A DNA stretch of 20,168 bases from Antrodiella citrinella. Taxonomy: Eukaryota; Basidiomycota; Agaricomycetes; Polyporales; Steccherinaceae. The notes beneath the pieces were generated by a model, which worked only from the letters and a program-made list of their open reading frames with translations, searched no databases and had not been told where the DNA came from. Of this stretch, positions 5,534 to 19,841 are shown piece by piece. Location of the stretch: positions 1-20,168 of the forward strand of contig SGPM01000407.1 in assembly GCA_004802725.1 (NCBI GenBank), in the 5' to 3' direction. Each line of letters begins with the position of its first letter. The first letter of the stretch is position 1. Position numbers and translations under genes: made by a program.

Positions 5534-7146
5534 ATGTGGCAGTCCTCAATTTTTACCTCGTCGCCGACGTCCATCGTCGCGACAATGGGTGGCCTCTTTC
5601 TTCTGTTCAAGATCTTCACGTGTTTGGTCCAACGCTCTCCGCTGGATAACATCCCCGGTCCGGAGCCTGTATCGTGGTGGAAAGGTAGAGCAATGACCAC
5701 ATGATGAGCATAATGACTGACTTATGCGGTATACTAGGTAATCTGGGGTACTTCTATGACCGTAATGGTTGGCACTTCCTTGACCGCTTGGACACGTACA
5801 ACGGTGTCGCCAGGGTAGACAGATTATTTGGCGTGAGTCTTGTCATTGTGTGCAAAACCCGCCAGAAAAACTGAGCAACTTTGTTCCTCTTGTTAGGCGA
5901 AACTACTTTATGTGTTCGATCCTACTGCGCTTCAGCACATCGTTACGAAAGACCAGCACCACTATGAGCCTGCGGCTTGGTTCACTGGATGGGACGAACA
6001 GCGCTCGAATTGATTGGACAGGGTGGTCTGGGATACTCGTTCGATCCTCTAACGGAGGATATTCCGAATGCATTCGGGCAAGCGATGAAAGCCTTCGTGT
6101 AAGCGCTTCTCTCAGCCAATTCTTTTGCTCGTATCTGATGTACGTTTGACAGACCAGCCATATTCACCTTGGGCCCCATTCGTTTCCTCACCCCGTATGT
6201 AACATTTGTCGAACGTCTGTCGTTCAAACGCACGATCATAGACAATATACCATTACCGACTTTCCAAAAGGTGCTCAAGTTGGTAGCCACCATAGACCAG
6301 TCGACCAAAGCTGTATATGAAGGAAAGAAGGCAGCTCTCGCGACGGGAGACGAAGCAGTCAAGGAACAAATTGGTGAAGGCAAGGATATCATGAGCATCC
6401 TCTGTAAGTATACTGTGTTTCAGGATATTACTTTACTGATCGTCCCTGCAGTGAGGGAGAATATGCTCACATCCGAAGCTGATAGACTTGGCGAAGACGA
6501 GCTACTAGGACAAATGACGTACGTGACTTTGTTTGCCTCGGTACTCTTCCCACAGCCTTAAACTGCCTCCACAGAACACTGATCTTCGCAGCAACAGATA
6601 CTACTTCCGGCGCGCTGACACAGATTTTGCACTTGCTGGCGGAGCACCCCGACACACAGGAAAGAGTCCGCGCTGAGGTCAAAGCTGCACTTCAGGATCG
6701 TGATGGGGACATCCCTTACGACGAAATTGTTTCTCTGCCCTATATGGATGCTGTCTGCCGTGAGACGCTACGATTGTAAGTTTGGACTTCAATTGCTGCA
6801 ACTTTGCACAGCTCATAGTCCCGCAGGTACCCACCCGTTCCCTATCTGTACAGACAGTAAGAATGATCCGCCTACTTTTCGATCTTGGCTTTAGCTGAGG
6901 AGGTGCTTCTAGGGCTAACCAGACAACCTCCATCTCTCTATTGCAACCAATTCCAGGGAGCGACGGTATCTTAATGAAAGATATCACGATACCCAAGGAT
7001 ACTATCACTATCGTTGGCATTCGGTCGTGTAACAGGAACAAAGCAATTTGGGGCGAAGATGCCCTTGAATGGAAACCAGAACGCTGGTTGTCTCCGCTCC
7101 CAGACGCGGTCATCGATGCTCGCGTCCCCGGGGTATATTCTAACCT
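5534..7146 (+). pseudogene. cytochrome P450 monooxygenase relic with internal deletion and missing haem loop
   Basis: The family oxidises small molecules at the ER membrane using a haem-thiolate iron. The start ATG at 5534 opens a hydrophobic anchor (about residues 14-32) and the IPGP hinge (residues 40-43). Exons are 5534-5684, 5738-5832, 5897-6098 (containing a frame break), 6153-6403, 6452-6518, 6575-6775, 6827-6856 and 6913-7146, with 48-64-nt introns. Visible motifs are the I-helix AATDTT (exon from 6575), ETLR (the ExxR of helix K), and EWKPERW (the PERF region). Near 5988, the segment ending YEPAAWFTG jumps directly, in another frame, to MGRTALELIGQGG. Roughly 70 expected residues with the C-helix WxxxR region are absent. 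The last readable exon ends VYSNL at a good donor (7147 GTAAGT), but no FxxGxRxCxG cysteine loop follows. Without these the protein could not bind haem. The subfamily is not assigned. Confidence 0.85.
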
Positions 7147-7664
7147 GTAAGTCCAAAATTCGCATCGTGTTACGACGAAGTGTAATAAGCAAGTCGAGGT
7201 TCTATCTGAGTAGTGATGTCACTTGTCTGAGTCTTGCTTAGGACGCTTTGTGTATTGAACAAAGGAGGTCAAGCTGAGGATGGTCCACAGCGAGACTGCT
7301 AGTTTATATACAAGTACAGATATGATGAGTCAAGAGAAAAGATAAGCAAAGAGACTTAGTAATACAGCGGGCATCGATGAGTAAGCCCTACAGCTTATGT
7401 TGAATAAGCAAGTCACATGATAAGTAAGTCATGTGGAGATGAGTCATGATGAATGACGAGACAAGGAATAAGAGTCCGTTAAGCAAAAAGAAAAGAAAAG
7501 AAATATAACTACAAGTTACAACGAAAACTGTAACACACGACTCGGACAAACAACCGACAACTTTCAACATTCAACGTTGAACTTCATAATATTTCGTCCA
7601 GGTCAGTTTCATTCACTACCTCATTGCTGCCATTGATCAGAGTTCTCATGCTCTCGTCCTCTAG
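7147..7664. other. AT-rich spacer after the truncated P450
   Basis: It begins with the orphan splice donor GTAAGT of the last P450 exon. It is AT-rich, with repeated ATAAGCAAGTC (7185-7195 and 7404-7414) and purine runs near 7485-7502. No haem-loop exon of the P450 and no initiator ATG for the next gene were found. A phase-compatible donor (7602 GTCAGT) pairs with the acceptor at 7663-7664. An upstream exon of the DUF6532-type gene could therefore end at 7601, but its open frame has no ATG before a TAA. Confidence 0.5.
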
Positions 7665-10016: not shown

Positions 10017-10644
10017 TACCTTCTTTATATTCTTTTGTCAATACTCTTCTGATTTGTCAGGCTGAGAGCTTACCATACATCATTCTCATATTAATCTTAG
10101 TATTCATGTTATAGTCTGCAATACCATTGATGTCATACCTGCTCCTCAATTATTGTGAGATGTGTTCTAAGGTTACTGAATGTCTAGCACTGAGCAACAA
10201 ATGTAGGCTATATCTGCATAGCTTATGAGTAACCTAGCCCAACCTTATGACTAGCTATGAGTAATTCATGTACACTATGCTTCAGTGTTGATAGGATTAT
10301 AGGGGACTTCTATAAGTATATGTAGTCTGTCTAATGAGCTTAAGATGCATAATTAGAGGTAGGCTACTATGATTTCTTTCATTTATGCAAATAAATCTCT
10401 AACTAGAAAAGATGGTTTTTCCTGATGTTGTCGTTTCTGTCGTTCAGAGAACTCAGAGGTCGACAGTGTTTCCATTTCAATTACCGGGTTTACGCTGGGT
10501 GTTGAGAATGTGAAGTGAGGGATACAACGACGAACACTTTTTTTTTTTTTTAAGTCAGCCGGACACCCATCAATGGGGCCGGAAATTTATACCCCGCGTA
10601 CTAAGTATGTGTACATGATGCGGCTTGTGCTAACGTGCGTCGAG
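10017..10644. other. intergenic stretch with T14 tract
   Basis: AT-rich sequence downstream of the DUF6532-like gene. No frame longer than a few dozen codons gives recognisable protein. A run of 14 T lies at 10538-10551, and a short inverted motif (GCCGG...CCGG) follows at about 10558-10585. The first part probably includes the 3' UTR of the upstream gene. Confidence 0.45.
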
Positions 10645-10652
10645 AACCCAGA
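10645..10652. repeat. 8-bp target-site duplication, left copy
   Basis: AACCCAGA directly before the left terminal inverted repeat, identical to 13281-13288. An 8-bp duplication is the standard footprint of hAT-superfamily insertion. Confidence 0.95.
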
Positions 10653-10674
10653 TAGTGTTGCCGCGAGACGAGGT
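10653..10674 (+). repeat. hAT terminal inverted repeat, left
   Basis: It begins TAGTGTTGCCGCGAGACG. It matches the reverse complement of 13259-13280 at 20 of 22 positions. The TA/CAGNG start is typical of hAT ends. Confidence 0.93.
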
Positions 10675-10677
10675 AAA

Positions 10678-10761
10678 GGTCACCTTGGAGTGACTGGACC
10701 AGTCACCTTGTCCACCTTGGAGTACCAGAGAGGTGTATCAAGGTGACCTCAAGGTGACCTT
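10678..10761. repeat. left subterminal repeat cluster (AAGGTGAC/GTCACCTT)
   Basis: GGTCACCTT at 10678-10686, GTCACCTT at 10702-10709, CCACCTT at 10712-10718, AAGGTGAC at 10740-10747 and AAGGTGACCTT at 10751-10761, in both orientations. Such clusters in hAT elements are transposase-binding sites. That role is inferred here from position and repetition. Confidence 0.8.
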
Positions 10762-10874
10762 GGAGTGCACACGTGGACCGTATGTGCTGAGTCATTGACT
10801 GTATTAGGAAGTATTGATGAGGCTGCTGCTGCTGCTGCCGCGCTCATATTGCTCCGGGGTTTTGTGAATGCCAT

Positions 10875-11909
10875 TCAAGCCAACATAGTACTATGATAGT
10901 AGTAGAAATAATTATATTTATTTGTCTGAATTCTCGTCAACGGGAAACGTCCGCGGAGCGGCAGCATCTTCCACCTGCATCTGCTCATGAGTTCACTGAG
11001 CTTGCCTTGGGACATGAGCTCCTCTACCTCCTCGTCCGATACATGAATTGTGATGAGCTCCGCCTCCCGAGTGAGCCATTTGTCACAAAAATACAATCGC
11101 TCTTGCCAAAAAGTGAACTTGAGGACTTGAAGGGTCTCAATAAGGGCCGCGGAAAGTCTGGACTGACACATGGTATCGGTTTCCTTACTAGAGGAAAAAA
11201 ACCCGTTCACAAGGAACGGCTGATGCCTGGATAGGCAGAACATCCATTGCAATCATCGCCGCAGCGCGTGAGCATTTTTGACCTCGTTGAGAAGGAGGAG
11301 AGAGATTAATAGTGAGAGCATTGGTGACAGTGGTAGGAGGTGCCGGAGCAGTTGGAGGATAAGGATTGTGGGCATACATTTGGTATGAGCCTCCCGCCTG
11401 AGGATGGCTGCCCGAGGTGGGGTAGAAGGGTGGCAGAATCCCATAGTAGTGGGCCGCAGGTGTGTAGTAGCCTTGCGGGGCATACTGTGTACCAGGGTAT
11501 GACAGATAGTAATGTGGTGGGTACAGAGGAGGCGGCTGATGCTGAGGTGCAGACGACGAAGTGGTCGTCGGAAAGGAGTGTGGTTCTGCGCTACCCCCTG
11601 GTATAGCAGAGTGAGACGGACTTGGAATCGAGCTGGAAGGTGTTGAAGGTCGTCCAGAAGGTGTGTAAGAACCGGCGCCACCAGACCACGGGTACGAGAA
11701 GCTTTGACGTGTGGGAGTTCCCTAATAAATCCCAATTAGCATCTGTAAAGCTCACTTGAAAAAATAAAAGAACAACATACCTCATGTGATGGAAAAGTGA
11801 GAGGTGTGCCCCCCTCTGCATACACGCCACAGCCACAGGGTGTACCAGCTGGGCATTGACAGACTGGCTGTGTGACCACAGCTGGCACACCACTATGGCC
11901 GGAAGCCAT
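10875..11909 (-). pseudogene. chimeric gene: Pro/Ser/Tyr-rich protein fused to hAT dimerisation domain, one frameshift
   Basis: Exon 1 runs 11909-11781 (MASGHSGVPAVVTQPV..., Cys-containing), then a 59-nt intron, then exon 2 runs 11721-10875. Exon 2 first codes about 150 residues of disordered Pro/Ser/Gly/Tyr-rich protein (PPHYYLSYPGTQYAPQGYYT). It then passes directly into AMDVLPIQASAVPCERVF, SSSKETDTM and LQVLKFTFWQERL, the signature of the hATC dimerisation region at the C-terminus of hAT transposases, with an acidic tail. A T7 run (plus-strand A7 at 11195-11201) causes a +1 frameshift between CERVF and SSSKETD. Without the extra base the two exons give exactly 325 codons including the stop. 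The frame is also open upstream of the ATG to 11981. Splice-like borders up to about 12210 on minus suggest further 5' exons, obscured by N calls. BED and catalytic domains are absent. Confidence 0.72.
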
Positions 11910-12384
11910 GTTGCGAGGGAGAGGTCTGCAATTCGAGCTCGAGTCTGACTGAAGAAGGTGGTGCTTAGTAGACATCTTCATCGAAAGATAGGAATGTTTT
12001 ATACTTACAGCCTGGTGCGCACGGTCCCTTCAAGCCATTGGCAATTATCGAAACAAAACAAACGGGAACNGCACTACAGTTCTGCAAGATATGAGATCNA
12101 ACGAACAATAAACNGAGGNGGGACTCACCAGAACGAGCAGATCGGCAGGTTCCCTTTGATTCTGACACCGAGCCGCAAGACCGCTAGNGCGACAATGGAT
12201 GTACCTATAAAAGATGTCAGTCCGAGGAGTCTTCANGGAGTAGCACCGCACAACAAGTCCCCGCAGTGAACAACTCGCAGCAGGACCATCTTCNGCTCAT
12301 AACACTTTGTGCAATGTCTAAGTTCGTGCAACTCAGATGTTCAATGATATTTCAAATAGACTAACTGTGAATCTACCTAGTCAG
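11910..12384. other. divergent intergenic/5' region of the two hAT-borne genes
   Basis: This lies between the minus-strand ATG at 11909 and the first confident plus-strand exon at 12385. It has seven N calls. Minus-strand borders (GTGAGT at about 12127, TGCAG at about 12083, GTAAGT at about 12010) suggest small 5' exons. One would carry NGLKGPCAPG. On plus, a Ser/Gln-rich frame (SSTAQQVPAVNNSQQ, about 12221-12290) could be an exon of the plus gene. Overlapping claims and Ns prevent a firm model. Confidence 0.35.
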
Positions 12385-13040
12385 GTTCCAGGTCTCTTGA
12401 TCCCGCCGGAGTCCCCTTCACTGTCGGAAGCCCCAACAGCACCTGGTGAGTGAAGATCAGGACGATGCAGCGAAAGATGCTGATACTTTGCCCATACCCA
12501 GTCACTCAAATATCGACTTCCCCTGAACGACGGGAGTTCACACCGGTATCTGACTCAGAAGGGGATCTGACGGACGTAGAAGACTCTACGGCCCTATCGA
12601 GCGCAGATAGAGAATTTGTGAGGCTTTTCGAGGCACTCCACGCGCTCTACTCGAGTCCTCGATACGCCAACAGTTGTTCTGCCGGGACGCTGCCAATCCT
12701 GCGTCGCTTTCATCCCGAACTACGCCCACCCGGATATGTTGTGCTCTTAAGCTCCGCAGAGCGTACTGCAGTTCAGGAGTTCTGCCATGCGTTTGAACGT
12801 ACGGCTCGTGATCAGAATGGCTTTAGCAGGGAGGGTACTGTTGATGCAATGCAGCAAGAGTTCGCTTTTTTGTTGGGATTCCTTTCGCAAACGATTCCCG
12901 CGTTGGCACGAGCTGGTCTGGGTCGAGATTTTGCCTATCAGCGACTGGTGTTAGGTATCATGCAGTTGTTTCTTGACGGTTTGAAGGCTATGGTGGAGAT
13001 TGACAAGCGGGTGGAAGGGACTGTACAACGTTCTATTTGA
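12385..13040 (+). CDS. hAT-borne gene of unknown function (3' exons)
   Basis: Exon 12385-12445 (after CTAGTCAG) joins through a 56-nt intron (gtgagt...acccag) to exon 12502-13040, giving about 199 codons that end QRSI and TGA. The first part is Pro/Ser/Glu-rich and acidic (SDSEGDLTDVEDST). The rest is a well-composed, probably helical domain (REFVRLFEALHALYSS, LLSSAERTAVQEFCHAF, MQQEFAFLLGFLSQTIP, LGIMQLFLDGLKAMVEI). I do not recognise it. The start is upstream and unresolved. It lies wholly inside the transposon, divergent from the hATC fusion gene and ending about 110 bp before the right subterminal repeats. It could be an accessory transposition protein or a captured host gene. Confidence 0.65.
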
Positions 13041-13147
13041 TGTCTTTCAATAGGCGTATATTGATGAGATTGGTGTATATACAATGTGAGGGAGACTCGG
13101 AGAGGCCAGGTGAGACAAATATGTTGAAACGACCGCAAAAGCGCTCA

Positions 13148-13247
13148 CCTCAATTTCACCTTGATGTGACCTCGAGGTGCCACATGGCCACCTTGATATG
13201 GCTCCAAGGTGAGACGCCAAGAAGCTGTCAAGGTAAAAGGTCACCTT
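13148..13247. repeat. right subterminal repeat cluster
   Basis: Copies and variants of CACCTT/AAGGTG: TTTCACCTTGATGTGACC near 13154, GAGGTG near 13174, CCACCTTGAT near 13189, CCAAGGTGAG near 13204, and GGTCACCTT at 13239-13247. AGGTAAAAGGTCACCTT here resembles AGGTAAAGGTCACCTT next to the left end. Inferred transposase-binding sites. Confidence 0.75.
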
Positions 13248-13258
13248 GCTTCAAGACG

Positions 13259-13280
13259 ACCTTGTCTCACGGCAACACTA
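13259..13280 (-). repeat. hAT terminal inverted repeat, right
   Basis: It ends CTCACGGCAACACTA. Its reverse complement begins TAGTGTTGCCGTGAGACA and pairs with 10653-10674 with two mismatches. Confidence 0.93.
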
Positions 13281-13288
13281 AACCCAGA
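13281..13288. repeat. 8-bp target-site duplication, right copy
   Basis: AACCCAGA directly after the right inverted repeat, identical to 10645-10652. Confidence 0.95.
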
Positions 13289-13747
13289 CGCAGAAATGGC
13301 GAACAGCGTGAGCTGATGCCAGGGGTGACAATGGAAATCGCCGGAGGTTCCTACCATTCCGCAAGCGGAGGAGGTGAGGATGAGGATGAGGATGAGAGGC
13401 CGGCGTGAGGGAGAATCGAACCCCAGATGGGCACAGGGCCGGGTTGACCCACCAGCACCTCTCGAGAATAATACCGCGCCCCACGTCGCGCATACAACGA
13501 TGAAAACACAAAGATCGAGAAGTGTGGCAGGCTCAGCTCAGCGGACGGCACCGTGACGAACGAGGGGCGCCCAGTAGAGCTGGCGAAGACATCGACCACC
13601 CCTCTCTTGAAAAGGAAACCAGCCCCTACTTGTGCCAGGGGTCCTGTCAAGATTAGATGGATCAGATCGTCTCTGGCTCATCGCTCTCAATCTCACTCTT
13701 ATTCAATGTTCTCGTTCTCGTTCGCCATTGCTTTACATCCCCTCGCC
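13289..13747. other. gene-less stretch right of the hAT element
   Basis: It contains a GAGGAT-type short repeat (about 13373-13394), a tRNA-like relic on minus (13401-13480) and a CT-rich stretch (13670-13747) that suits the promoter or 5' UTR of the following gene. No protein-coding frame is convincing. Confidence 0.45.
13401..13480 (-). other. weak tRNA-like / SINE-like relic
   Basis: On the minus strand the 80 nt start GGCGCGG and end TCACGCCG, so six of seven acceptor positions can pair. GGTTCGATTCT (13422-13412) matches a pol III B box and forms most of a T-arm. A normal D-arm and a 7-base anticodon loop are not visible, so this is not a functional tRNA. Chance is possible. Confidence 0.2.
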
Positions 13748-14856
13748 ATGATCCCCCCCATCGAGATTGACGGCATCAGCTACGAAGTCCTCTCCTACAA
13801 TGAAACAACAGGTGCATGACGATCTCTGCGGCAAGATGATTGGCTTGTGCGAACCAAGCAAGACTTCGTCGCTGCAGAACACAGGTCGTCAGATAAATGT
13901 GTGGAGCAGGCGAAGAAAGCAGGTAGAAGGAACCAAAAGGTACGCATATTAATTGATACTCCTCTATCATGCTCGCTGATGGGACATAACGTCTTTAGTC
14001 ATCTGCACTGAACATTTCTCGACAACCAGACACTTCGACCGCCACAGCAAGTAATGACCCCGATGCCGTGTCGTGTTCAACCCTTTCTCTTTTTATTTTA
14101 GGCTCCTCCCGTGATCATATACCGGTACCCTCACCAACCTATTGTGATCTCACTCCGTTTTCGACCACCAGTGCAACCCCTCCGCCTCTTTCTGCGCTCT
14201 CATCGCTATCGTCCACTCCAACAACTCACATGGTGCTTTTCTACATTGTTCAACATNGCCATCATCTCGCTCAACTCCCGCACCCATACACCAGTTCCTC
14301 GTCCGAGTCAGGTCTTGCCAACTACATCGGGCGACAACCCTTGTGGGTTCTGCGGACTAGACGGCTGCTTTATTCACTCAAACGAACAAAGAGTGGGAAG
14401 ACTTACNAAGTGCTGTCCAGCTGCAAGTACCACTATAAAAAAATGGTGTATTCCGCGGCTTCCAAATCTTCAGTCAACGCGCCGTGCACCAATATTCCAA
14501 TTCACTGCGACACCTGCAAGCACTCACAGTCAAGGCGCCGACGAACCATTTGGAAGTTCAATGCACTCTATCATGTCACGAGTGAGCATTCAACGGACGA
14601 CAACAATTTCCCTATCATCGGAAAGCGACTCCTCGTTGACATGTTCATCTCATCCGAAGAAGAAATGGTGTTGGGCATTGGGAAGGAGCGGACGGCGAGG
14701 TATCGAGTGGAGAACAGGTTGTTGGATAGCGATGATTACCGTGAAATCGCGGAGGACTTGAAGAGAGCTGTGGAAGTGAAGACAAAAGACGATCGCGCAG
14801 AGTCCGATTCGAGTGTAGTCAGTACACAAACACAACCGCCCACAAAACGGCGATGA
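13748..14856 (+). pseudogene. zinc-finger-like fungal protein with in-frame TGA and probable compensating indels
   Basis: ATG at 13748 opens MIPPIEIDGISYEVLSYNE. Exons 13748-13939, 13999-14050 and 14102-14856 are joined by 59- and 51-nt introns and give 333 codons in one frame, but TGA interrupts at 13817-13819 (codon 24). After the stop the frame continues in coding style (DDWLVRTKQDFVAAEHR). The C-terminal part has CKYHY, PCTNIPIHCDTC and, further on, TIWKFNALYHVTSEH. This makes a C-x2-C...H-x4-H arrangement like a C2H2/BED-type finger, which I associate with a large lineage-specific mushroom family. It is followed by an acidic/basic tail. Between about 14257 (an N) and 14375 the more protein-like reading is in the next frame (DNPCGFCGLDGCF, adding C-x2-C-x4-C), suggesting two compensating indels or base-call errors. 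The biological role is unknown. Confidence 0.55.
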
Positions 14857-15593: not shown

Positions 15594-18500
15594 TTGATGA
15601 GGAATGGGTTGTGGAGATTAGTGAAGGGAGTGGATGTGAAGGCGAGCAGAGCGGACCCTCTGGCTCTGACAGCGGAGGAGAGCAAGGCTGAGAATGCCTG
15701 GGATGACAAGGCTATGAAAGCGGCTGGTGAGCTGTTCCTCAACATCACTCCTGAGCAGAGGATCTACCTGGCTGGGATTGAGGATGATCCTGTTCTTATC
15801 TGGACTACCCTCGAGTCTCTGCACCTCCAGAAGCGTCCAGGAGCTCGTTTCAACGCCTATGATACGCTCTTTTCGATCCACAAGCTGGAGGGAGAGTCCC
15901 TGCAGCAGATGATGGGCAGGATAGATGAGTGCATGCTCTCTGTGCGCAACCTTCGTCCTTCTGGCTTCACTCTGCAGATGCTGGACGACGAATTGGTCTG
16001 TATGACGATGCTTAGAGCGTTGCCAGAGCAGTACAAGTTCCTAGCCACCTCTCTGCAGCTTGCAGACAAGCTGGAAAAGTCCGCACTTTTGCAGGCCTTC
16101 ATCACTGAGGACATCTCCCAACTCCGTCACAGCTCCTCCTCCGCCGGTCCCCTCATCACAGCACTCTCAGCAACGTCTATTCATTCATCTGCAACGACGA
16201 CCGGCCCCCCATGCGAGTTCTGCTCCATCCCTGGCCATGCCCTTGCTGCATGCTATCGCTTTAATGCTGCCAAGGCCACTGCCTCTGCTGAGGTGCAAGA
16301 TCGTCGCTCCAATCGTCGTGGTGGCCCCCCTGGTGGCCGTGGACGTCCCCAGCGTGCCAACGCAGCTCAGGAAGCCTCTAGCACGACTGGGACGGTCGAG
16401 GAATTTGCTGGGAGCGCTGCAGTGCGTCTTGATCCTTCAGACCTCCTCTCTCCCCTCGACGCTTCTGCTCACTCCTCTTGGACTGCAGACACAGGCGCCA
16501 CTTCTCATATGACCCCTCATCGCCACTGGCTCCGCAACTACTCCCTCCTTCGCCTTCCAATCCGCCTCGCAGACAACACCATTGTGCATTCAGCTGGGGT
16601 TGGGAGCGTGCTTTTTGCACCGGTTGTGGGGAGGTCTCAGTTGCGTCCTGTAGAGTTTCAGCGTGTCCTTCATGTCCCTGCCTTGAAGTCGAACCTCCTC
16701 TCTGTTCTATACATCACTCGTCACAATCCTATCGATGTTCACATCCATGGCAGCTCTATGGACTTCAGATTGAACGGCAGAACACTTTTCTGCGCCCCTG
16801 TTGACTCCAGCAACATCGCTTTTCTTGCTGGCTCTGTTGTTCCCTTGTCTGAGTATGCACACTCTGCTTCTCTTTCGACTCTACCCCTTGATGTTGCGCT
16901 CTGGCACCGTCGCTTGGGCCACCACAACTACCAGGGTGTCCGAGATCTCATGCGCAAGGAGATGGTGACTGGGATGAAGCTCGACAGCTCCCGGAAACCT
17001 GATCCCATCTGTGAGCCCTGCCTTGCAGGCAAGATGCACGCCAATCCCTTCCCTTCTACTGGCCATTCCACCTCTCGCTCTCTCGCCCTCGTTCACTCTG
17101 ATGTGCACGGTCCTATGCCTGCTGCAACGCACCAGGGCTTTCGCTTTTGGAACCTCTACCTTGATGACCATTCCCACTTCCTTGCTGCGCTCCCTATGCG
17201 TCTCAAAAGCCAGACCTTCCCCTCTTTCAAAACCTACCACGCCTACGCGACTGTCAAGCAGTCAGCGAAGCTAGGTGAGCTTCAGGATGACAAGGGAGGT
17301 GAGTACATGTCCAACGAGTTTGAGGAGTTCTGTGCCTCTCATGGCATTGTGCGGAGGCATACTGTGCGCAATCGGCCACAGCAGAATGGGGCTGCTGAGC
17401 GGATAAATCGTACTCTTGAGGAGCGGATTATATCTATGCTCCAAGAGGCCGGCCTGCCTGACACCTTCTGGGGAGAGGCTTTGGCTGCTGCTGTTCATGT
17501 TCTCAACTGCTGCCCTACCTCNGCTCTCGCTGGCAAGACACCTTATGANGTGTGGCATGGGCGCAAGCCCGATCTCGCTCATTTGCGAGTTTGGGGCTGT
17601 ACTGCTTATGTGCATGTGCAGAGGGACAAGCGGACTAATCTGGGCTCGCATATGGAGAAATGCGTGTTCATTGGCTACCCAGATGGCTACAAGGGATGGA
17701 AGTTCTACAACCCTACCACCAAGCGTGTTGTCATCTCAGAGAGAGCTGACTTTGATGAACGCTTTTTCCCTGGCTTGAGGAACCAACNTCGCCTTTCCCC
17801 TGCTCTTCCTTCATCTACCCTTTCTTCGCCTTCGCTCCCTCTTCCACCTAGCGACGCTAGTACCCTTGGGACGGTCCTAGTGCCTCAGCATGGGGGGGAG
17901 GTTGATGCTGATCCTGTTGAGCCTCCAGCATTTGTGATTCCTGCTGAGCCACTTGCACCTGCTGCACCTGCTGCTCCAGATCCACTTNCACCTGCTGCTC
18001 CTCCCTCTCCTCATTCCTCTCGTTCCTCATCGCCTTTGCCATCGCCTTCTCCGCCTCCTGCTGCATTGCCTCGACGATCAACCAGGACGAACATCGGACA
18101 ACCTCCTGCTGAATGGTGGAAGGCTAGGCAGCCCACTCCAGCCATAGAGAGTGACAATGAGTCGGACTCCTCTGATGATCCTCTCCTGCTCACAGATGAG
18201 CGAGCTGCTGCTGTTGCTGCCTTGTCGATGCTGGCTGATCCGCTTACTTATGCGGCCGCTCTGCGCCATCCCAAGGCCAAGCAGTGGATTGCTGCTGCTC
18301 TGGATGAGTACAACAACCTCATTGCCAATGGCACTTGGGAGGTCACCTCTCTGCCTCCGGGTTTTCATGCCATTGGATGCAAGTGGGTGTTCCTCACCAA
18401 GTACCTCGCTGATGGCTCTGTAGATCGCTACAAGGCTCGCCTTGTGGCCAAGGGCTTCTCCCAGCGTCCTGGATTCGATTATGTTGAGACCTTTGCTCCC

Positions 18501-19841
18501 ACTGTGCGTATGGCTACTCTCCGCATCATCCTCGCTCTTGCTGCCCTTGAGAACCTCGAGATTGTCTCTATTGACATCTCCCAGGCCTTCATCAATGGGG
18601 ACCTGGACGTCGAGATCTACATGCAGCAGCCTGAGGGTTTCAAGCATGGGAATCCAGGTGATGTCCTTCGCATTCGCAAGGGCTTGTATGGACTGAAGCA
18701 AGCTGGTCGTCTCTGGAACCAGAAGCTGAATGCTGCTCTCCTCTCCATTGGCTTTCTGAGAGTCAAAGCGGACGCTTCTGTCTATGTCTATGCCAGGGGA
18801 TCCTGCCGTGTCATTATTCCTATCCATGTCGACGATATCACCCTTGTAGGCCCCTCCAAGCCTGAGATCGAGCAGATTATCTCTGAGCTCTCTCAGCACT
18901 TCAAATTGCGTGTTCTAGGCGACACCTCTTGGCTGCTAGGCATTGAGATCATCAGGGATCGAGCAAAGCGCTCTCTCTCTCTCAGTCAGCGTCAGTATGT
19001 TGTCAACATGCTTGACCGCTTTGGGTTCTCCAGCTGCAGCCCTGTCTCTACTCCCATGGAGCCAGGAAAGCGACTGGGACCTGATCAATGTGCTCGCACT
19101 TTTGCTGAGCAGCAAGAGATGCAGGCCATTCCCTACATCAATGCAGTTGGTGCTCTCATGTACCTTGCCACTTCCAGTCGTCCTGATATTGCCTTCACTG
19201 TCTCCACCCTTGCTCGCTTCAACTGCAACCCTGGCATGATCCATTGGTCTGCTGTGAAGCATCTCTTCCGCTATCTCAAGGGCACCCTTGATTTTCGCCT
19301 CACCTATGCTCCCAATCCCCAGTCTTCCGCTNTATTCACCACCTACACTGATGCAGACCATGCTGGTGATCTGGAGAAGTGTCGCTCCACTGGTGGTTAC
19401 CTTGTGACCATTGGCACTGGTGCAGTCTCCTGGAGCAGCAAACTCCAGCCCATGGTCGGATTATCCACCACAGAGGCTGAGTATGTTGCTGCTGTGGAGG
19501 CTGGCAAGGAGATCATCTGGATGCGCCACTTGCTCTCTGAGTTTGGCTACAAGCCCAAAGGTCCTTCTCCCTTGTTCACTGACTCCAACTCCNCTCTCAG
19601 TGTGGCTAAGAACCCAGAACACCATGGCCGGATGAAGCACTTGGATCTGCGCTTCTACTGGCTCAGGGACCAGGTTGAGGACGACCTCATTGCCCCTTTC
19701 CATCTGCCTGGTGCTATGATGCCTGCAGACATTCTGACCAAGGCTCTGCCTCGTCAAAAGGTCGAGTTGTTCAGGGAGATGATGGGTTTGAGAGATCAGA
19801 GAAGTCTCACATCAGGNGGGACTGTTGGACGAGCTTCTTGA
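15594..19841 (+). CDS. Ty1/copia Gag-Pol polyprotein, N-terminally truncated
   Basis: Open for 1415 codons after TAG at 15591-15593; the first ATG is 15597. It encodes the proteins for cytoplasmic particle assembly, reverse transcription and nuclear integration. Numbered from 15594: Gag body up to about 180 (RNGLWRLVKG, RPGARFNAYDTLFSIH); CCHC zinc knuckle 207-220 (CEFCSIPGHALAAC); aspartic protease D299-T-G-A; pre-integrase H438/H443...C473/C476; integrase triad D503, D566, E602 with D(35)E spacing; a Pro/Ser-rich spacer about 740-850; reverse transcriptase with FAPTVR, DISQAFINGD and the VDD active site at 1079-1081; RNase H YTDADHAGD (D1253) and LSTTEAEYVA. All key catalytic residues that I can see are present. 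Several codons contain N. Only the extreme Gag N-terminus is lost. The stop lies 19 bases inside the 3' LTR. Confidence 0.93.
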   Translation: MMRNGLWRLVKGVDVKASRADPLALTAEESKAENAWDDKAMKAAGELFLNITPEQRIYLAGIEDDPVLIWTTLESLHLQKRPGARFNAYDTLFSIHKLEGESLQQMMGRIDECMLSVRNLRPSGFTLQMLDDELVCMTMLRALPEQYKFLATSLQLADKLEKSALLQAFITEDISQLRHSSSSAGPLITALSATSIHSSATTTGPPCEFCSIPGHALAACYRFNAAKATASAEVQDRRSNRRGGPPGGRGRPQRANAAQEASSTTGTVEEFAGSAAVRLDPSDLLSPLDASAHSSWTADTGATSHMTPHRHWLRNYSLLRLPIRLADNTIVHSAGVGSVLFAPVVGRSQLRPVEFQRVLHVPALKSNLLSVLYITRHNPIDVHIHGSSMDFRLNGRTLFCAPVDSSNIAFLAGSVVPLSEYAHSASLSTLPLDVALWHRRLGHHNYQGVRDLMRKEMVTGMKLDSSRKPDPICEPCLAGKMHANPFPSTGHSTSRSLALVHSDVHGPMPAATHQGFRFWNLYLDDHSHFLAALPMRLKSQTFPSFKTYHAYATVKQSAKLGELQDDKGGEYMSNEFEEFCASHGIVRRHTVRNRPQQNGAAERINRTLEERIISMLQEAGLPDTFWGEALAAAVHVLNCCPTXALAGKTPYXVWHGRKPDLAHLRVWGCTAYVHVQRDKRTNLGSHMEKCVFIGYPDGYKGWKFYNPTTKRVVISERADFDERFFPGLRNQXRLSPALPSSTLSSPSLPLPPSDASTLGTVLVPQHGGEVDADPVEPPAFVIPAEPLAPAAPAAPDPLXPAAPPSPHSSRSSSPLPSPSPPPAALPRRSTRTNIGQPPAEWWKARQPTPAIESDNESDSSDDPLLLTDERAAAVAALSMLADPLTYAAALRHPKAKQWIAAALDEYNNLIANGTWEVTSLPPGFHAIGCKWVFLTKYLADGSVDRYKARLVAKGFSQRPGFDYVETFAPTVRMATLRIILALAALENLEIVSIDISQAFINGDLDVEIYMQQPEGFKHGNPGDVLRIRKGLYGLKQAGRLWNQKLNAALLSIGFLRVKADASVYVYARGSCRVIIPIHVDDITLVGPSKPEIEQIISELSQHFKLRVLGDTSWLLGIEIIRDRAKRSLSLSQRQYVVNMLDRFGFSSCSPVSTPMEPGKRLGPDQCARTFAEQQEMQAIPYINAVGALMYLATSSRPDIAFTVSTLARFNCNPGMIHWSAVKHLFRYLKGTLDFRLTYAPNPQSSAXFTTYTDADHAGDLEKCRSTGGYLVTIGTGAVSWSSKLQPMVGLSTTEAEYVAAVEAGKEIIWMRHLLSEFGYKPKGPSPLFTDSNSXLSVAKNPEHHGRMKHLDLRFYWLRDQVEDDLIAPFHLPGAMMPADILTKALPRQKVELFREMMGLRDQRSLTSXGTVGRAS
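19811..19822 (+). promoter_or_regulatory. putative polypurine tract
   Basis: Purine-rich ATCAGGNGGGAC immediately before TGTTGG of the 3' LTR, the expected place for plus-strand DNA priming. One base is undetermined. Confidence 0.55.

What the first reader, a model, noticed from the sequence alone, without database searches (positions are those of the whole stretch)
10645..13288. Complete hAT element defined by ends and duplication, not by its coding content
TIRs of 22 bp (TAGTGTTGCCG...) match at 20 of 22 positions and are bracketed by a perfect AACCCAGA 8-bp duplication. These borders identify a hAT insertion of 2628 bp even though no transposase catalytic core is inside. Homology-only annotation would probably miss the element or annotate only two hypothetical genes.
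Basis: partly seen in the sequence, partly recalled or inferred. Interest (0 to 1): 0.75.

Follow-up and report, generated by a model that had tools for sequence, protein, structure and literature searches.

The report
Gutted mushroom jumping gene, second gene kept
In a wood-decay fungus a 2.6 kb stretch of DNA is a jumping gene that lost the middle of its own jumping enzyme, yet kept its ends and a second, evolutionarily conserved gene of unknown function that its sister copies carry too.

Summary
Window 10653-13280 (2628 bp) has 22-bp ends matching at 20/22 and a perfect 8-bp duplication. The same 2628 bp lies on another contig with its own duplication, GAACAGCG. A paralogous empty site with one, diverged target copy exists. 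The hAT label holds through larger family copies: in one, a hand-made 11-exon model gives a 1103-aa open frame with the hAT dimerisation domain. The window element is a Ds-like internal-deletion derivative: about 2.9 kb with the catalytic core is gone, and both ends of the transposase gene remain. So its coding content does identify it, by comparison within its own genome. All 12 ACCTTG hexamers lie in the terminal 130-140 bp, six per end. Less ordinary is the second gene (12314-13040, three inferred exons, 203 aa): present in all five family copies found, under purifying selection between diverged copies (dN/dS 0.07-0.16), without significant Pfam or PDB match. The derivative kept it open. 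I read it as a transposon accessory gene; function is not shown. The species is most likely Antrodiella citrinella.

The parts
10645..10652 (.). left target-site duplication AACCCAGA
   Evidence: sequence; single, diverged copy (5 of 8 bases the same) in the paralogous empty site C18:47377-47674
10653..10674 (+). left terminal inverted repeat (TAGTGTTGCCGCGAGACGAGGT)
   Evidence: the same left end is in C313, C227 (reversed piece) and C269
10682..10762 (.). left subterminal cluster: six ACCTTG/CAAGGT hexamers
   Evidence: 12 of 12 copies in the element lie in its terminal 130 and 140 bp
10926..11252 (-). remnant of the last transposase exon (C-terminal dimerisation region), out of frame soon after the junction
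   Evidence: alignment to C269 and C572 copies; the exon in C269 hits Dimer_Tnp_hAT E 8e-10; the window's own frame has no Pfam hit. Lower boundary approximate
11253..11259 (.). deletion junction with a few unaligned bases; about 2.9 kb of transposase gene is missing here relative to C269 and C572
   Evidence: the identical junction is in the C313 copy
11260..11721 (-). remnant of transposase exon 2 (proline-rich N-terminal part)
11781..11909 (-). transposase exon 1 with start codon
   Evidence: GT-AG intron 11722-11780
11910..12313 (.). intergenic region between divergently oriented transposase and second gene (presumed two-way promoter)
   Evidence: inferred from gene orientation; alignment of five copies
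12314..12321 (+). second gene, inferred exon 1 (8 nt, with ATG)
   Evidence: hand-made gene model from conservation and splice signals; no transcript evidence
12381..12445 (+). second gene, inferred exon 2
12502..13040 (+). second gene, exon 3 with the conserved core and stop; 203 aa in all
13158..13264 (.). right subterminal cluster: six ACCTTG/CAAGGT hexamers
13259..13280 (-). right terminal inverted repeat
   Evidence: shared by C313, C572, C227 and C269
13281..13288 (.). right target-site duplication AACCCAGA
   Evidence: sequence

Best explanation
The element is a non-autonomous hAT transposon, an internal-deletion derivative (Ds-type) of a low-copy two-gene hAT family. The family has one split transposase gene on the minus strand and, divergently oriented, a small second gene on the plus strand. 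An ancestor lost about 2.9 kb of the transposase gene (the RNase-H core and, by eye, a BED-like zinc finger) but kept TIRs, subterminal ACCTTG repeats and the second gene. The shortened form then transposed as a unit to at least two sites, presumably with transposase supplied in trans by fuller family copies. Shown by sequence: borders, two insertions of the same derivative with different duplications, a paralogous empty site, the deletion, the hAT domain in larger copies, and purifying selection on the second gene between family copies. Inferred: mobilisation in trans, ACCTTG as transposase binding site, the gene models, the second gene as an accessory protein of the transposon (transposition cofactor or protection from silencing).
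For: Borders and chance control. Second copy of the same 2628 bp at C313 with duplication GAACAGCG, 32 substitutions plus 7 positions where the window reads N, no length difference. Empty site. Larger family copies with ~2.9 kb extra at the junction. Hand-made 11-exon model in C269, all ten introns GT-AG, 1103 aa open; the deposited prediction P0004 for the C572 copy has most of the same exon joints. Dimer_Tnp_hAT E 2.7e-12; the four PDB sequences matched are all transposases, two of them named Hermes; relatives named AC transposase or hAT in mushrooms. Transposase dN/dS 0.13 over 1090 codons between C269 and C572, intron divergence 22%. Subterminal repeats 6 + 6, none between. Second gene in 5 of 5 copies; dN/dS 0.07-0.16 in the seven comparisons involving C227 or C269, p 3e-7 to 2e-29. 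24 of 27 transitions between the two derivative copies are at CpG, as expected for methylated copies.
Against: No complete autonomous element is present in the assembly. C269 has both ends and an open transposase frame, but its flanks do not form a duplication and it is a mosaic whose parts change affinity across a nested Plavaka insertion. C572 lacks the first ~150 bp of the left end. C227 is cut by the contig start. The hAT RNase-H Pfam model scores below its cut-off (E 0.0014, 19.3 vs 27 bits) and no zinc-finger model was hit. The target in the empty site shares only 5 of 8 bases with the duplication, as it is a diverged paralogue. Selection on the second gene within the derivative itself is not shown (3 synonymous and 3 non-synonymous differences, p 0.16). 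The second gene was not found in the stretches held around the second TIR subfamily.
Confidence: 0.93

Rival explanations
1. The second gene is a host gene fragment captured by the transposon, as some Ds-like elements do, with no role in transposition.
For: A diverged relative (38% identity) lies at C345:20571-21005 with no transposase match in the stretch held. Maize Ds-like elements occasionally carry gene fragments (PMC3260210, abstract).
Against: It is in all five family copies found, has been under purifying selection while synonymous sites diverged to 0.68-0.95 between the two groups of copies, and the inferred splice sites are kept across copies. The stretch held at C345 ends 459 bp beyond the match, so absence of a transposase there means little.
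Confidence: 0.12
2. The shortened transposase gene makes a truncated protein that represses the family, as deleted P and hobo elements can (recalled, not from a call).
For: The exons read through the junction for 220 aa, joining the N-terminal part to the start of the dimerisation region in frame, and the junction is identical in both copies.
Against: The frame is lost within the dimerisation region and stops; the core and most of the dimerisation region are absent.
Confidence: 0.05
3. It belongs to another superfamily with 8-bp duplications (Kyakuja-Dileera-Zisupton, P or similar; their duplication length is recalled).
For: 8-bp duplications are not unique to hAT (recalled), and Kyakuja and Zisupton elements occur in Agaricomycetes (PMC12730594 passages).
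Against: The family transposase carries the hAT dimerisation domain, and its PDB matches are hAT-type transposases.
Confidence: 0.01
4. The borders are a chance arrangement or an assembly artefact.
For: The window has Ns and the assembly is fragmented (602 contigs).
Against: The same borders occur at an independent site with a different duplication; an empty site exists; none of 200 shuffles reaches 18/22.
Confidence: 0.01

Closest known systems
Ds-del elements of the maize Ac/Ds family
   Same: Internal deletions of the autonomous element; the family shares TIRs, some subterminal repeats and 8-bp duplications (PMC3260210, abstract and outline seen).
   Different: This derivative keeps a second gene with an open frame; Ac is a one-gene element (recalled).
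MarorhAT-4/-11/-12 and autonomous MarorhAT-10 of the mushroom Marasmius oreades
   Same: Non-autonomous hAT forms sharing TIRs with an autonomous element in an Agaricomycete; activity observed there (PMC9674265, passages read).
   Different: Those short forms are 597-631 bp; the passages read mention no second gene.
TET/JBP-carrying hAT7 elements of Puccinia
   Same: hAT elements in Basidiomycota that carry a further gene besides transposase, proposed to counter methylation-based silencing (PMC12730594, passages read).
   Different: Their duplications are 7 bp and the extra gene is a dioxygenase; here the extra gene has no significant Pfam match.
Mushroom hAT transposases in the protein collection (some named 'putative AC transposase', e.g. 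Hypsizygus, Grifola, Mycena; others only by the hAT dimerisation domain)
   Same: 38-44% identity over 85-98% of the part searched for the 24 best relatives after the species' own protein.
   Different: Whether those elements carry the second gene was not tested by position; none of their listed proteins came up in the second-gene searches, of which the profile search scored only the 7998 best-sharing candidates.

Membership tests
hAT superfamily | 8-bp target-site duplication | tested here: met
   AACCCAGA at the window copy, GAACAGCG at C313: the 2 of 5 copies with both ends on one contig and no rearrangement. C269 has both ends but unmatched flanks
hAT superfamily | short TIRs of YARNG type (consensus recalled) | tested here: met
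   TAGTG...CACTA, 20/22
hAT superfamily | subterminal repeats near both ends | tested here: met
   12 of 12 ACCTTG in terminal 130 and 140 bp; such repeats in hAT ends are discussed in PMC4763223 (passages read)
hAT superfamily | transposase with C-terminal hAT dimerisation domain, in the family | tested here: met
   C269: E 2.7e-12; P0004 from the C572 copy: 1.1e-11
hAT superfamily | the same domain in the window copy itself | tested here: not met
   no Pfam hit in the window's remnant frame; only a remnant by alignment. Membership rests on shared ends and homology
hAT superfamily | RNase-H fold catalytic core (in the family) | tested here: inconclusive
   hAT-like_RNase-H E 0.0014, below its cut-off; PDB matches cover only the C-terminal part; acidic motifs seen by eye only
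Ds-type internal-deletion derivative | same ends as a longer coding relative, internal part missing | tested here: met
Ds-type internal-deletion derivative | the shortened form itself transposed | tested here: met
   same junction at C313 with a different duplication
Ds-type internal-deletion derivative | complete autonomous partner with both ends and duplication | tested here: not met
   C269 mosaic without matching duplication, C572 lacks the left end, C227 cut by contig start
Ds-type internal-deletion derivative | mobilised by the partner transposase | not testable with these tools
   needs a transposition assay
Kyakuja-Dileera-Zisupton | KDZ transposase | tested here: not met
   family transposase is hAT by domain

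The most novel reading that the evidence does not exclude
The family is a two-gene hAT lineage whose second protein is a dedicated, previously undescribed helper (for instance an anti-silencing or transposition cofactor). Deleted derivatives that keep this gene would then be more than passive parasites: they would supply the helper while borrowing the transposase.
Probability: 0.3. Interest if true: 0.6.

Novelty: new variant of a known kind. Interest (0 to 1): 0.4.

Why it matters
The element is a clean case in which borders, empty site, sister insertion and source family can all be read from one draft genome. The larger point is the second gene. hAT elements are usually treated as one-gene transposons (recalled); a conserved partner gene with no known domain suggests an added function in a mushroom hAT lineage and gives a specific protein to test. 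It also suggests why small spliced genes inside transposons are overlooked: the three relatives found in the protein collection have no name and one source label, lgn, which I take to be assemblies without submitted annotation (recalled).

Tried and rejected
Structure prediction of the second gene's main exon with four sequences gave an all-helical model of very low confidence (mean pLDDT 45); I did not search folds with it. The stated rule of that tool does not list proteins from genome-search loci, so the deeper family alignment was not sent.

PDB and Pfam searches of the second gene gave nothing significant (best weak matches Hpt E 0.15 and HisZ-like E 0.022). Rfam (gathering scores) and tRNA scans of the window were empty.

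I considered the second TIR subfamily (TAGTGTTGCCGCGAGT..., seven of the 27 exact 11-mer sites, by my reading of the flanks) as possible carriers of the second gene; a profile search of frames of 25 codons or more in all held loci, about 1.5 kb on each side of such a site or less, found none there (best weak match E 0.46 in L016). Of the 27 sites nine are ends of this family, one a short relic, and ten look unrelated beyond the 11-mer; the reversed-pattern control gave 13 sites, so many exact 11-mers are chance.

Selection on the second gene inside the derivative was tested and is inconclusive. A repressor role for the shortened transposase was considered and rated low.

Papers: eight searches (one search was for the species name). 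None of the titles and abstract starts listed named a hAT element with a second gene like this one; the TET/JBP-carrying hAT7 elements (PMC12730594) are the nearest case seen. That is a statement about these listings only. Passages or abstracts were read from four papers; no paper was read whole.

Full report
1. Observation. The 22-bp inverted repeats (20/22) at 10653-10674 and 13259-13280 and the perfect AACCCAGA duplication are present exactly as described. Of 4079 pairs of identical 8-mers at least 60 bp apart in the window, this one bounds inverted ends matching 20/22; the next best reaches 13, and the best of each of 200 shuffles ranged from 12 to 17. The 11-mer TAGTGTTGCCG, one mismatch allowed, occurs in the window only at the two ends; 1 of 100 shuffles also had two matches.

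2. Other copies. The genome holding the window (30.0 Mb, 602 contigs) gave nine DNA matches in five contigs, the window included; the tool calls such counts lower bounds. C313 holds the same 2628 bp with 32 substitutions and seven positions where the window reads N, without any length difference, flanked by GAACAGCG on both sides. So the shortened form itself moved. C572, C269 and C227 carry longer relatives. The left end was found in 4 places and the right end in 5, each count including the window, so the family is low-copy in this assembly.

3. Empty site. The left flank (10539-10650, 92%) and the right flank (13281-13485, 86%) match adjacent, overlapping stretches of C18 (minus strand, 47377-47674). 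Joined flanks align without a break across a single copy of the target, which shares 5 of 8 bases with the duplication. It is a diverged paralogous site, not an allele.

4. What was lost. Against C269 and C572 the window element lacks about 2.9 kb at positions 11252-11260, with a few unaligned bases at the junction. In C269 that region encodes most of a hAT transposase. My hand-made model, guided by the alignment to C572, has eleven exons with GT-AG introns and an open frame of 1103 aa; the deposited prediction P0004 for the C572 copy has most of the same exon joints. Pfam finds Dimer_Tnp_hAT at 953-1033 (E 2.7e-12) and a sub-threshold hAT RNase-H match; it finds no zinc finger, though one of BED type can be read by eye. 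The four PDB sequences matched are two named Hermes transposase and two named transposase, over the C-terminal part only. Of the 43 listed protein relatives, out of 7992 candidates scored, 42 name a fungus, all Agaricomycetes as far as I know; several are called AC transposase or hAT. The best, P0004 of Antrodiella citrinella, lies on a contig of 95,041 bases, the length of C572; this is how the organism was inferred. In the window the transposase start, exon 1 and part of exon 2 remain, then part of the last exon; the frame runs 220 codons and ends within the former dimerisation region.

5. Ends. All 12 copies of ACCTTG or its complement in the element lie in the terminal 130 bp (six) and 140 bp (six); the whole window has 22. 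Subterminal repeats are reported to be important for the hAT-type enzyme Kat1 and to be present in Hermes and other elements (PMC4763223, passages read).

6. The second gene. The plus-strand frame 12450-13037 is found in the window, C313, C572, C227 and C269, and as a diverged relative at C345 (38%). Alignment of the five copies shows conserved sequence and splice-like signals upstream, giving a three-exon model of 203 aa (inferred, no transcripts). Over 169-172 codons dN/dS is 0.07-0.16 for the seven comparisons involving C227 or C269 (p from 3e-7 to 2e-29), 0.27-0.32 for C572 against the window or C313 (p 0.0007-0.005), and 0.32 with p 0.16 between window and C313. So the gene has been selected during the life of the family; whether it still is in the derivative is open. 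The transposase gives 0.13 over 1090 codons (C269 against C572), by exon 0.01-0.38 apart from exon 1, which has only four changes. Three protein-collection relatives exist (82, 58 and 43% identity), all labelled lgn and without names (in one search only the 7998 candidates sharing most words were scored). No significant Pfam or PDB match. The structure model was too poor to use.

7. History. C269 is closer to C572 left of its Plavaka insertion (91-94% in the three stretches compared; the core itself is 89%) and closer to C227 right of it (91-96%), which fits a mosaic joined at the insertion, real or by assembly, and would explain its unmatched flanks. Of 27 transitions between the two derivative copies 24 are at CpG, although only 19% of C+G positions lie in CpG; this fits decay of methylated copies. 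In Agaricus bisporus CG methylation is reported to be almost restricted to transposons (PMC12730594, passage read).

8. Verdict. The derivative is ordinary in kind. The conserved second gene is the part worth following. Its role as accessory protein is inference.

Noticed in passing
window 15594-19841 (+): Long open frame (1415 aa) of a Copia-type retrotransposon with gag, integrase and reverse transcriptase domains.
   Followed up: no
window about 5.5-7.15 kb (+): Cytochrome P450 exons (PF00067, E 9e-20 for 6576-6776; a later piece only E 0.043) that by eye break off near 7150; what follows was not identified.
   Followed up: partly
C269:7101-14127 (L009/L010): A Plavaka transposase gene (PF18759, E 1e-85) lies in an insertion inside a family copy, and that copy changes affinity from C572-like to C227-like across it.
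   Followed up: partly
C227:4095-4229 (L013): A right end abuts the outermost 124 bp of a left end in reverse orientation, consistent with insertion of one family copy into another.
   Followed up: partly
C228:3137-5114 (L024/L025): A 1978-bp element of a second TIR subfamily that keeps a transposase C-terminal part and shows no match to the core; its flanks do not form a matching duplication.
   Followed up: partly
C578:15287 (L040): About 30 bp resembling this family's left end, then a different sequence: a possible relic end.
   Followed up: no
C345:20571-21005 (L046): Diverged relative of the second gene (38%); the stretch held ends 459 bp beyond it, so whether it lies in a transposon could not be told.
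   Followed up: partly
window 10153-10652 and 13281-13780: The insertion sits in repeated sequence: parts of these flanks have 14 and 9 other matches in the genome.
   Followed up: no
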